A stretch of DNA of 45,052 bases from an uncultured Candidatus Melainabacteria bacterium (lineage in GTDB: Bacteria > Cyanobacteriota > Vampirovibrionia > Gastranaerophilales > Gastranaerophilaceae): the NCBI GenBank assembly GCA_946055575.1, contig CAMGGL010000002.1, positions 1-45,052 on the forward strand, given 5' to 3'. This document shows positions 815-35,780 of the stretch, one piece after another. Each line of letters opens with the position of its first letter. The stretch's first letter is position 1. Position numbers and translations under genes: made by a program. A model generated the notes under the pieces. The model was not told where the DNA came from and did no database searches. It was given only the letters and a program-made list of their open reading frames with translations.

Positions 815-1891
815 ATGGGTGATGAGGACAAGCAATTTGATGCCACCCCTCGAAAACTCGAGCAGGCAAGAAAAGAAGGGCAGGTTGTTAAGTCAAAAGA
901 CTTTTCGACAGCAGTTTCTTTGCTTGTTTTATTTTCCGTAATTTTTGGATTAGCACCTTTTATTTGGGATCAAATTGTTCAGGTTTTTACCCTTCTGTAC
1001 GAACAAATTCCAAATGCCCATACCGAAAAAATCGGTTACATGTACATCCTATTGATTGCGGTAAAAGGAGCCGCACTAATTATAGGTCCAATTCTTGCAA
1101 TTGCTTGGCTTGTAGCGGTATTAGCAGATTTTATACAGGTAGGACCTTTAGTTGCAGTCGCACCTTTAATGCCAAAACTTGATAAACTAAATCCGACAAA
1201 ATATTTCAAAAATATTATGTCAATAAAAACCTTGTTTGAATTATTTAAAAACATCATAAAAGTTATTATTTTAGGTTATATCGGCTGGATGGTTTATAAA
1301 GACCACATTGAGTCAATACTTATGCTTGCATCTATTGATAATAACTTTGCTGTCATGATAGAATTTGGCAAAATTATTACCGAATTTATTTTTAAAGCCT
1401 GTATCGCTTTTTTGATAATTGCAGCGGCAGACTATGGTGTCACTAAGTGGAAATTTTTAAAAGACCAAAAAATGTCGTTCAAAGAAATAAAAGATGAATA
1501 CAAAAACTCAGAAGGTGACCCAAACGTAAAAGCTCAACTTCGCCAACGACGAATGCAAATGCTACAACAGGGAGCAATGGATGCTGTGCCTACCGCAGAT
1601 TTTGTCGTAACAAACCCCACACATGTCGCCTGCGCACTTAAATATGTGGCAGAAGAAATGGATTCTCCAATGTTAATTGCTAAAGGGACAGAGCTTATTG
1701 CGAAAAAAATTATAAATATTGCAAAAGAACATAATGTTCCGGTTATTGAAAACCCACCTGTAGCCAGAGCTTTATTTAGAATGGTAGATATAAATCAATC
1801 AATTCCTCCTGAATTGTATAAAGCAGTTGCTGAAATTTTAATGTTCGTATATAAGATGAAAAATCCATCAAATAAACGACCGCGAAATTAA
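815..1891 (+). CDS. flhB: FlhB/SctU-family type III export apparatus protein
   Basis: Inner-membrane export-gate component that switches substrate specificity in the flagellar (FlhB) or injectisome (SctU) type III secretion apparatus. The N-terminus has the family signature ATPRKLEQARKEGQVVKS (residues 10-27). Four hydrophobic segments follow, at roughly 33-55, 75-105, 143-162 and 185-205. The linker signature EGDPNVKAQLRQRR precedes the autocleavage motif NPTH at 267-270, which is intact, followed by the usual cytoplasmic domain. The 358-residue length is typical. The next gene is a sigma-28-like factor 30 nt downstream, which favours the flagellar member of the family. No flhA, flhF or other export gene is in the window, so flagellar versus injectisome assignment rests on that neighbour. 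Confidence 0.9.
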   Translation: MGDEDKQFDATPRKLEQARKEGQVVKSKDFSTAVSLLVLFSVIFGLAPFIWDQIVQVFTLLYEQIPNAHTEKIGYMYILLIAVKGAALIIGPILAIAWLVAVLADFIQVGPLVAVAPLMPKLDKLNPTKYFKNIMSIKTLFELFKNIIKVIILGYIGWMVYKDHIESILMLASIDNNFAVMIEFGKIITEFIFKACIAFLIIAAADYGVTKWKFLKDQKMSFKEIKDEYKNSEGDPNVKAQLRQRRMQMLQQGAMDAVPTADFVVTNPTHVACALKYVAEEMDSPMLIAKGTELIAKKIINIAKEHNVPVIENPPVARALFRMVDINQSIPPELYKAVAEILMFVYKMKNPSNKRPRN

Positions 1892-33117: not shown

Positions 33118-33432
33118 CTAGTCCTGTTTGTTTTGAGAGTATTTCTTATAAACATCTGCAACTGATTTGTACAATGACGGAATTTGAGTTATTTTATGCG
33201 TAAGGTAATATGGATTTGAAAAAGCGGAAAACACTTCAGCACTAACCGTTGAGGTTGTATTCGCAGCCAAACGTAACTTGTCATCTTTGATATCATTTTT
33301 GTCAAAAGTTCTTCTAAACGGGTTATCAGCTTCATACACGTCATAAGTTACGGTATCTATCATCTGAGTTATAGGCGTAGAATCAACCCAATTTGAAAAA
33401 TTCTGAATTAATGTTGCATTTATCAAATTCAT
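33118..33432 (-). CDS. Uncharacterised small protein, 104 aa
   Basis: No family recognised and no signal peptide or membrane helix. Predicted mixed sequence with an Asn/Thr-rich start (MNLINATLIQNFSNW), an acidic/basic centre (YEADNPFRRTFDKNDIKDDK) and an amphipathic C-terminal part (PSLYKSVADVYKKY). There is no convincing ribosome-binding site before ATG, which weakens the call. It sits between gpmI and the calpain-like protease gene, 227 nt from the latter, and ends just before the gpmI promoter. Confidence 0.5.
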   Translation of the reverse strand: MNLINATLIQNFSNWVDSTPITQMIDTVTYDVYEADNPFRRTFDKNDIKDDKLRLAANTTSTVSAEVFSAFSNPYYLTHKITQIPSLYKSVADVYKKYSQNKQD

Positions 33433-33659: not shown

Positions 33660-33660
33660 T
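33612..33660 (-). terminator. GC-rich hairpin after the calpain-like gene, probable terminator
   Basis: Outer arms ACAAAAG (33612-33618) and CTTTTGT (33654-33660) enclose a GC-rich inner stem, GGCGCCGC (27-34 of the 33600s) against GCGTCGCC (44-51), with one mismatch. On the minus strand the hairpin starts at the protease stop codon and ends in CTTTTGTTGT. The internal loop is asymmetric, so the exact fold is uncertain. Confidence 0.5.
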
Positions 33661-35693
33661 TACGGAAGAATAATATTATCTCCCGGATGTATCATTACAT
33701 GTGTATGAGCTCTATTCCATTTTAAAGACGGATTTGCTTTCATAATTTTGTTAACGTAATTTGCAATCTGTGTTGAAGTTGCCCCTTCACCCAGATGTCG
33801 TTTTGCAATTTTCCACAAATTATCACCACGAACTACCGAGTATGAATTAGTTTCAGGTTGTGTCGGATTATTTGGATTAACCGAATTATCTGGATTTTGA
33901 ATATGGGGATTTTGGCTATCAGGATTGTTATGTACATCATCAACCGTAATTGCAGGTTTTGTTGTATCTGCAACGGTTAAATGGCTCACTGCTCTAATAA
34001 AATCTTCTCTTGACATAGTAACTTCTTTATCAGGATGCCAAGGGTTAACCAAAGTTACAGTATCTGCGGTTACCGATTTAATAGTAAGTGCATGTCCACC
34101 CAGTTTTCCGTTCGCATGTACAGTTTGAAATGATGCAATTGCAATATTATCAGTACGCCCATCTTTAGCATCATTCATAATACTATCCAGCATTTCATTT
34201 AATTTTTCTTTATCTTTGGTAATTTTACCATCTACCTCTGAAACTGCAGCTTTAGTGAGTTCACCGGTCTGCTTATGCGTAGGCAAAACAGATATTTGAC
34301 CTTGTTGTAAATCTTCATAAGAAAGACCGAAAGGAGGATTATCCTTATGTATTGAATATACACTAGACTGTCTGCCTGTTAAGATAAATGTCGGATCTTC
34401 CGAGAAACCGCCGGAAAGTATATTCTGTCTATCCGACCCTGTTTGAGTTCCTGCCAACCCCATCTTCTGATTCAAAGAAGGATTTGCATCCAAAGTTTGT
34501 GCAACTTCATTACGGTATTTTTCAAAGGCAGCTTCTAGTAAAATAACATCACCGTCTCCAATAGAATAGCGTTGTCCTGCTTGCTTTAAAATTTCTTCCA
34601 TTTCAGATTCGGTAAATGTATAAGTTCCCGTAATATACATTTTATTCGGGTCAACTTTACTATCTGTTTTTAACCCTTCCGCAGCAACCAGTGCTCCTGG
34701 GAAAGTGACTGTATAAACTTTTTCGCCGTTAGAATTTGTTTCAATCTTTACGAGATTTTTTAACATTTCCTGCCCGTTATCAAGCTCACGAATACTATTA
34801 ATCGTCGCCATTAAGTAGCAATCACCTTCGCTGACCTGTCTTGATAAACCAAAATCACCATCTATTTCAGCAGATATTTTTTGGGTAACATTGCCTTGTT
34901 CATCATATTTCTTTTGTTCTTTTATAACACCATTATCCCAGTATGAAGTTTCTGCTTTTACGTCTCCATTTTCATAATATGCAACGGTATTATGAATTTT
35001 TCCGCTATCATAACAATCTGTCTTTGATTTGATTGCACCACTCGGATATTTAACCTCTTGTGATACAAGAGTTTTATTATCGGCTTGATATTGGTTATAT
35101 GCTGTTTGTTTAAGTTTATTATCTTTATCATAACATTCAACAACAGCTGTATGATTCTTTTTATCACGCTGTTTGACTCTTATATCATTTATTAATTCAC
35201 CATTATTATCAAAAATTTTTCTATTTTCAAGCAGCCCTTCTTTGTCATAAAGCTCTTTTCTTATCAATTTATTTTCAGCATTAAAGGTTTCTTTCTTTTT
35301 AACTTTCCCGTTACGATGATATTCATAATTTGCCGTGACTTGATTTTTTTCACCAAAATTATAGATTTCACTTGACGGTTGCTTCTTTTGAACATCTTTT
35401 TCATTCTTAAATCTCAAACAGTATTTGATTTTATTACCATTGTTATTTTTTGTAGTAACAAATTCAACAGTTCCGTCATCATACTTTATTAAAACACCCT
35501 GCATATTGTCATAAGTGAACTTTTCTTGCGATACGAGATTAGTTTTTGACGGATCAATACGGTGAGCAGCAGTATTCAAAGCCGTACCAATATTCAACTT
35601 TTTAGCCGGATTGACAAGTTCGGCATTAAAACCTGCATCCCTTAGCTGTTGTGTTAATTGAACCGGATTAAAATTATCAACTCTATCTGTCAT
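33660..35693 (-). CDS. Calpain-like cysteine protease with YwqK/MORN-like repeats and C-terminal LysM
   Basis: 677-residue protein. Residues about 115-275 are repeats of the YwqK/MORN type (YEYHRNGKVKKKETF, KYPSGAIKSKTDCYDSGK, YYENGDVKAETSYWDNG). The middle is a family C2 (calpain) peptidase: Gln286 and Cys292 in RQVSEGDCYLMA with the canonical six-residue spacing, His534 in KLGGHALTI, and Asn550 in VNPWHPDK, a complete active site. After an Asn/Pro-rich linker (about 585-615) comes a LysM domain (618-676: YSVVRGDNLWKIAKRHLG). There is no signal peptide. AGGAG five nt before ATG fixes the start. Monocistronic. Substrate and location unknown; LysM suggests peptidoglycan or glycan binding. Confidence 0.88.
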   Translation of the reverse strand: MTDRVDNFNPVQLTQQLRDAGFNAELVNPAKKLNIGTALNTAAHRIDPSKTNLVSQEKFTYDNMQGVLIKYDDGTVEFVTTKNNNGNKIKYCLRFKNEKDVQKKQPSSEIYNFGEKNQVTANYEYHRNGKVKKKETFNAENKLIRKELYDKEGLLENRKIFDNNGELINDIRVKQRDKKNHTAVVECYDKDNKLKQTAYNQYQADNKTLVSQEVKYPSGAIKSKTDCYDSGKIHNTVAYYENGDVKAETSYWDNGVIKEQKKYDEQGNVTQKISAEIDGDFGLSRQVSEGDCYLMATINSIRELDNGQEMLKNLVKIETNSNGEKVYTVTFPGALVAAEGLKTDSKVDPNKMYITGTYTFTESEMEEILKQAGQRYSIGDGDVILLEAAFEKYRNEVAQTLDANPSLNQKMGLAGTQTGSDRQNILSGGFSEDPTFILTGRQSSVYSIHKDNPPFGLSYEDLQQGQISVLPTHKQTGELTKAAVSEVDGKITKDKEKLNEMLDSIMNDAKDGRTDNIAIASFQTVHANGKLGGHALTIKSVTADTVTLVNPWHPDKEVTMSREDFIRAVSHLTVADTTKPAITVDDVHNNPDSQNPHIQNPDNSVNPNNPTQPETNSYSVVRGDNLWKIAKRHLGEGATSTQIANYVNKIMKANPSLKWNRAHTHVMIHPGDNIILP

Positions 35694-35780
35694 ACTTATC
35701 TCCTATGATTTACAATTAATCTCGGCACAAGCGCAAATTTCTTTAATTTACAACACCAATTTGTTACAAAATTTAACAAT

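What the first reader, a model, noticed from the sequence alone, without database searches (positions are those of the whole stretch)
33660..35693. Calpain-like protease combined with YwqK/MORN-like repeats and a LysM domain, without a signal peptide
Seen: a complete C2-type active site (Gln286, Cys292, His534, Asn550-Pro-Trp), upstream repeats of the N-G-x-hydrophobic type and a C-terminal LysM. Established: calpain-like proteases are sparse in bacteria, and LysM binds peptidoglycan or related glycans. Inference: the protein may be exported by a non-Sec route or act on the cell's own wall or a neighbour's, with the repeats as a targeting or inhibitory region. The architecture is unfamiliar to me.
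Basis: partly seen in the sequence, partly recalled or inferred. Interest (0 to 1): 0.68.

Follow-up and report, generated by a model that had tools for sequence, protein, structure and literature searches.

The report
Calpain-like LysM protease of gut Melainabacteria
This gene encodes an intact calpain-type protein-cutting enzyme joined to a repeat sheet and a cell-wall-binding (LysM) domain; it belongs to an expanded family in non-photosynthetic gut relatives of cyanobacteria, has no ordinary export signal, and may leave the cell through a filament-less type III secretion machine that these bacteria all keep.

Summary
The 677-aa protein (33660-35693, minus strand) carries Gln286, Cys292, His534 and Asn550-Pro-Trp. 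The predicted structure of residues 277-580 matches human calpain protease cores end to end (Z 15.0; all top hits). Residues 104-275 show a 12-residue repeat (z 8.0, 0 of 2000 shuffles), modelled as one continuous beta-sheet. LysM (618-676) passes Pfam's cut-off. There is no signal peptide or membrane helix. Two corrections: Pfam's calpain model PF00648 does not hit this protein directly (15 of 44 relatives do), and the repeats score below the MORN_2 cut-off.

The host is a Candidatus Gastranaerophilales bacterium. The protease belongs to an expanded, patchy family nearly confined to that lineage: three genes in this genome; relatives in 95 of 386 genomes of the phylum, 90 of them in its own family. 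Two species share the close architecture; others swap the tail or add EF-hand-like motifs.

Every genus member keeps a type III export gate (46/46), yet 45 of 46 lack flagellin; that gate is an order-wide clade distinct from flagellar FlhA. I favour non-Sec export, most likely through it, to act at a wall or glycan surface. The protease is well supported; export is inference. New variant of a known kind.

The parts
33660..35693 (-). Calpain-like protease gene, 677 aa
   Evidence: catalytic residues conserved in relatives
35699..35704 (-). Shine-Dalgarno-like AGGAGA before the ATG
   Evidence: sequence
35547..35693 (-). Residues 1-49: disordered N-terminus, not hydrophobic; candidate export or chaperone-binding region (inferred)
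   Evidence: pLDDT under 50; hydropathy
34869..35537 (-). Residues 53-275: continuous antiparallel beta-sheet; 12-residue YwqK/MORN_2/YD-like repeats in 104-275
33954..34865 (-). Residues 277-580: calpain-like protease core
   Evidence: AF2 pLDDT 90.7; Z 15.0 to calpain-1 core; Foldseek top 18 rows all calpains
34836..34838 (-). Gln286 (oxyanion hole)
   Evidence: invariant in 44
34818..34820 (-). Cys292 (nucleophile)
   Evidence: invariant in 44
34092..34094 (-). His534
   Evidence: invariant in 44
34038..34046 (-). Asn550-Pro551-Trp552
   Evidence: at least 90% conserved
33855..33926 (-). Residues 590-613: Asn/Pro-rich linker, partly disordered
   Evidence: pLDDT under 50 for 596-613
33663..33848 (-). 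Residues 616-677: C-terminal LysM, longer than the Pfam model (59 residues matched to 42 positions)
   Evidence: Pfam 24.0 bits over cut-off; strand-helix-helix-strand in the model
33118..33432 (-). 104-aa ORF downstream, pI 5.7, no Pfam match; also downstream of the orthologue in one other species; possible partner, not shown
815..1891 (+). FlhB/SctU type III export gate subunit, on the same contig but about 32 kb away
   Evidence: PF01312 E 1e-114

Best explanation
It is a calpain-fold cysteine protease with an intact active site, built as: disordered N-terminus, beta-sheet of 12-residue repeats (scaffold or substrate-binding), protease core, flexible linker, LysM. The most likely working: it leaves the cytoplasm by a non-Sec route, most probably the lineage's filament-less type III secretion apparatus. 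LysM then holds it on peptidoglycan or another N-acetylglucosamine glycan, its own or a neighbour's, while the protease core cuts proteins near that surface. SHOWN: the calpain fold by prediction, conserved active-site residues, the repeats and LysM, no Sec signal or membrane helix, lineage expansion with patchy distribution, a conserved type III export gate without flagellin. INFERRED: proteolysis, glycan binding, export, route and target.
For: Catalytic residues invariant or nearly so in 44 family members; the others share only 17-58% identity with it. Model of the core matches calpains over its whole length: Z 15.0, 200 residues, 3.6 A; the top 23 rows are calpains, best other papain-like protein Z 9.7. 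12-residue repeats; LysM. No Sec-like N-terminus in 42 of 44 members. The C-terminal LysM recurs in about 20 further proteins of the genus with unrelated N-termini and no signal peptide, although many of those have an internal hydrophobic helix. In one species a gene three places downstream encodes EF-hand-like motifs, two LysM and an HExxH motif. Export gate: FHIPEP in 46/46, flagellin in 1/46, rod proteins in 44/46, VirB4 in 0/46 of the genus; FliE/FliF/FliH/SctV cluster; FlhB in the window itself; divergent SctV clade separate from flagellar FlhA, 100/100 support. N-termini of relatives are Ser/Thr/Asn/Gln-rich, 0.337 against 0.231 for housekeeping proteins (relatives not independent).
Against: No secretion data. 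The gene lies next to fatty-acid genes (fabF, fabG, fabD), not type III genes, and fabF is also close by in four other species' loci. No chaperone identified. Cytoplasmic LysM proteins exist (E. coli YgaU/Kbp; own knowledge), and the LysM here resembles that NCBIfam model, though far below its cut-off. The gate is in nearly every genome and the protease in a minority, so co-occurrence says little. Secretin, needle and translocon genes were not looked for.
Confidence: 0.42

Rival explanations
1. A cytoplasmic regulatory or processing protease. The repeats and LysM act inside the cell as protein or ligand-binding modules, as LysM does in cytoplasmic YgaU/Kbp.
For: No signal peptide or membrane helix. 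Stable place near the fab genes in several species. Only 3 of 66 bacterial calpains have predicted signal peptides (PMC4631099). Some relatives carry EF-hand-like motifs, which would suit calcium regulation.
Against: The family is patchy and variable in its tails, unlike a housekeeping enzyme. LysM-bearing proteins are usually outside the cytoplasmic membrane (own knowledge).
Confidence: 0.33
2. An effector against other bacteria or protists, delivered by lysis, vesicles, a type I system or another non-type-III route; the repeat sheet acts as carrier as in RHS/YD proteins.
For: Foldseek for the whole model ranks RHS and teneurin sheets among the first rows. RHS_repeat or YD models hit 6-7 of 44 members. 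One genus member has a type I ABC/HlyD/RTX-like cluster. One weak relative lies in Legionella quateirensis.
Against: TM-scores to RHS are about 0.1. No immunity partner conserved: the 104-aa ORF recurs in only one other species. No C-terminal RTX repeats. No type VI or VII search was made.
Confidence: 0.15
3. A decaying remnant without function.
For: One relative, in genome G045, is broken by stops; many genus members lack it.
Against: Open 677-codon frame, conserved active site, orthologues at 58-60% identity still intact.
Confidence: 0.04

Closest known systems
Calpain family (MEROPS C2, Pfam PF00648), human calpain-1/-3 protease core
   Same: Predicted two-lobed core over residues 277-580, Z about 15, about 20% identity; same Gln/Cys/His/Asn-Pro-Trp order
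   Different: PF00648 does not detect it directly; no calpain domain III or penta-EF-hand domain found; repeat sheet and LysM instead
Known bacterial calpains (Rawlings 2015, PMC4631099; cyanobacterial set of PMC9380684)
   Same: Active-site residues intact, mostly without signal peptides
   Different: Most are peptidase domain only and one per genome, none with EF-hands; here several per genome, LysM tails, 12-residue repeats, EF-hand-like motifs in some relatives; neither paper mentions LysM or Melainabacteria
YwqK/MORN_2 (PF07661) and RHS/YD repeats
   Same: Short N-G-x-hydrophobic repeats forming a beta-sheet
   Different: Scores below the MORN_2 cut-off; modelled as an open sheet, not compared in detail with the closed RHS cage
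LysM (PF01476)
   Same: Over the Pfam cut-off; strand-helix-helix-strand
   Different: Longer than the Pfam model; no Sec signal on the carrier protein
Flagellar and injectisome type III systems
   Same: FlhA/SctV, FlhB, FliE, FliF, FliH and rod proteins in the genome
   Different: No flagellin; the SctV copy forms its own clade, about 37% identical to flagellar FlhA of the same genome where both occur

Membership tests
Calpain-like cysteine proteases (C2 fold and active site) | Gln, Cys, His, Asn in order, with Asn-Pro-Trp | tested here: met
Calpain-like cysteine proteases (C2 fold and active site) | Two-lobed calpain protease core fold | tested here: met
   pLDDT 90.7; Z 15.0, 200 residues, 3.6 A to 2g8e; Foldseek E 6e-5, top 18 rows calpains
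Calpain-like cysteine proteases (C2 fold and active site) | Proteolytic activity dependent on the Cys | not testable with these tools
   needs an assay
Pfam Peptidase_C2 (PF00648) | Score over the curated cut-off | tested here: not met
   no hit to this protein at E 10; paralogue L001 passes (28.8 against 23.8 bits); 15 of 44 members hit at E 0.01
Classical (vertebrate-type) calpain | Domain III and penta-EF-hand domain | tested here: not met
   neither reported by Pfam
LysM (PF01476) | Score over the curated cut-off | tested here: met
   24.0 against 20.9 bits, residues 618-676
LysM (PF01476) | Binding of peptidoglycan or chitin | not testable with these tools
   needs a pull-down
MORN_2/YwqK repeats (PF07661) | Score over the curated cut-off | tested here: not met
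   24.9 against 29.6 bits, although a 12-residue period is clear
RHS/YD cage proteins | RHS core fold | tested here: inconclusive
   among the top Foldseek rows, but TM about 0.1
Type III secretion substrate | No Sec signal and a disordered N-terminus | tested here: met
   (necessary, not sufficient)
Type III secretion substrate | Gene linkage to the apparatus or a cognate chaperone | tested here: inconclusive
   not adjacent; no chaperone recognised
Type III secretion substrate | Shown to be secreted through the system | not testable with these tools
   needs an experiment
Non-flagellar type III system (the divergent SctV clade) | Export gate separate from flagellar FlhA, without flagellin | tested here: met
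Non-flagellar type III system (the divergent SctV clade) | Secretin, needle, translocon | not tested

The most novel reading that the evidence does not exclude
Gut Melainabacteria carry an order-wide, previously unrecognised filament-less type III secretion system, taken until now for a decaying flagellum. Its cargo includes a modular, fast-diversifying set of proteins built from EF-hand-like motifs, YD/MORN-like sheets and LysM tails that carry calpain-like and other peptidase domains. This protein is one of that cargo.
Probability: 0.28. Interest if true: 0.85.

Novelty: new variant of a known kind. Interest (0 to 1): 0.6.

Why it matters
Bacterial calpains are described as rare, mostly single-domain and mostly one per genome. 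Here is a lineage in which they have multiplied and gained cell-wall and repeat modules. If exported, they would be a way for uncultured gut relatives of cyanobacteria to act on neighbours or host material, and would give a use to the incomplete flagellar gene set that these genomes keep. It also makes an open question testable: why bacteria without a filament retain the whole type III export gate.

Tried and rejected
Direct PF00648 scan: no hit, so the calpain claim was tested by relatives and structure instead. Sequence search of solved structures with the single protein: only weak TarM matches to the repeat region; with the whole-family profile, only teneurin at E 0.0045; with the core profile, calpains only at E 0.03 and above. 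First genome-contig scan with the single sequence found nothing; the alignment scan worked. Type IV secretion as exporter: VirB4 absent in 46/46. A conserved link between a calpain paralogue and the second FlhA-like gene, suggested by contig C12, did not hold in genus members whose contig positions could be compared. The 104-aa ORF as a fixed partner: found in one other species only. Alternative tail (A4) as LysM: profile match probability 80, E 1.4e-5, not recognised by Pfam; treated as probable. EF-hands in calpain relatives are under Pfam cut-offs, so called EF-hand-like.

Full report
WHAT IS THERE. The ORF at 33660-35693 lies on the minus strand and encodes 677 residues behind an AGGAGA ribosome-binding-like site. 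All stated active-site residues are present at the stated numbers. Its G+C (34.8%) is that of the window (33.5%), so nothing suggests recent import.

THE PROTEASE. Pfam's calpain model does not detect the protein itself, but 15 of 44 family members hit it. Across those 44 members, which share 17-58% identity with this protein, Gln286, Cys292 and His534 are invariant and Asn550-Pro-Trp nearly so. A model from the family alignment has mean pLDDT 85. The core modelled alone has pLDDT 90.7 and pTM 0.90. VIA-align gives Z 15.0 to the human calpain-1 core (200 residues, 3.6 A, 20% identity); the first 23 rows are all calpains, with isolated cores mostly at Z 12-15, and the best other papain-like protein has Z 9.7. 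Foldseek's first 18 rows are calpain cores.

THE OTHER PARTS. Residues 104-275 repeat with a period of 12 (z 8.0, with harmonics at 24 and 36, 0 of 2000 shuffles). They are modelled as part of one continuous antiparallel sheet, residues 53-275, most like OspA and the extra beta-sheet of TarM-type enzymes. Residues 1-49 and 596-613 are disordered. LysM covers 618-676.

WHOSE IT IS. The nearest relatives with names are Candidatus Gastranaerophilales (Melainabacteria) genomes from guts and rumens, among them Zag_111; some records bear generic or apparently mislabelled names. The genome holds three calpain-like genes. A catalytic-domain profile finds relatives in 95 of 386 genomes drawn from the phylum: 90 in the same family, 3 in sister families of the order, and 2 borderline matches elsewhere in the phylum. 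A weak relative lies in Legionella quateirensis.

ARCHITECTURES. Two species share the close architecture (58-60% identity; L005, L006). Others replace the LysM by a tail that is probably a divergent LysM, add an EF-hand-like loop near the N-terminus (8 members by pattern; below Pfam cut-offs), or lack repeats and tail. fabF lies close by in four other species' loci. Rawlings 2015 (PMC4631099) reports bacterial calpains as mostly single-domain, usually one per genome and without EF-hands, and its text mentions neither LysM nor MORN; the cyanobacterial survey (PMC9380684) does not mention Melainabacteria.

EXPORT. None of the relatives has a credible Sec signal; the two exceptions in the hydropathy scan look like upstream start codons. 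Type IV secretion (VirB4) is absent. Every genome of the genus has a FlhA/SctV gate, 44 of 46 have rod proteins, FlhB lies in this window, and FliE (by eye), FliF and FliH sit beside SctV. Yet flagellin is found in only one, a bin with 6% contamination. Over the order, full-length FlhA/SctV falls into two score classes. A tree separates them with 100/100 support and 37-39% identity within one genome. About 70 of 192 genomes have the canonical flagellar form; nearly all, including those 70 with few exceptions, have the divergent one (counted by hand). Di Rienzi 2013 (PMC3787301) and Soo 2014 (PMC4040986) read the incomplete sets as flagellar loss. The data here fit better with a separate, conserved type III system, though its outer parts were not examined.

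JUDGEMENT. That this is a divergent calpain-like protease with repeats and LysM is well supported. That it is exported, by this route, to a wall or glycan surface is the best single story but inference at each step; a cytoplasmic role is the main rival. Novelty: new variant of a known kind.

Noticed in passing
G000 contig C1 (L123:12702-18558), window 815-1891, and 192 genomes of the order: A second, divergent FlhA/SctV with FliE, FliF and FliH, distinct from flagellar FlhA (100/100 support), is kept in nearly all genomes of the order, including those without flagellin: probably a non-flagellar type III system read earlier as flagellar decay.
   Followed up: partly
L125:9926-11407 (G000 contig C12): A 493-aa protein with only the cytoplasmic C-terminal domain of FlhA (FHIPEP positions 309-653) is conserved at about 495 aa in nearly every genus member; role unknown.
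   Followed up: partly
L056, L053, L057 (G000 contigs C22, C27, C161): Giant proteins (open frames of 3632, 2329 and over 1300 aa) begin with EF-hand-like motifs, YD-like repeats and a LysM, with no signal peptide; the first contains annexin-like G-x-G-T-D repeats by eye.
   Followed up: partly
L062:9581-11659: Three genes downstream of the calpain orthologue in that species: EF-hand-like motifs, two LysM and a C-terminal HExxH motif, a possible metallopeptidase without signal peptide.
   Followed up: partly
L143-L159: Many genus proteins end in the same long LysM variant behind a single internal hydrophobic helix and an unrelated N-terminal region, so they may be membrane-anchored with LysM outside.
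   Followed up: partly
L009 (G045 contig C6): The calpain-like gene of one genus member is interrupted by stop codons.
   Followed up: no
L130:5-5868 (G030 contig C2): A type I secretion ABC transporter, an HlyD-like protein and an RTX-like repeat protein lie directly upstream of the FliE/FliF/SctV cluster in one genus member.
   Followed up: no
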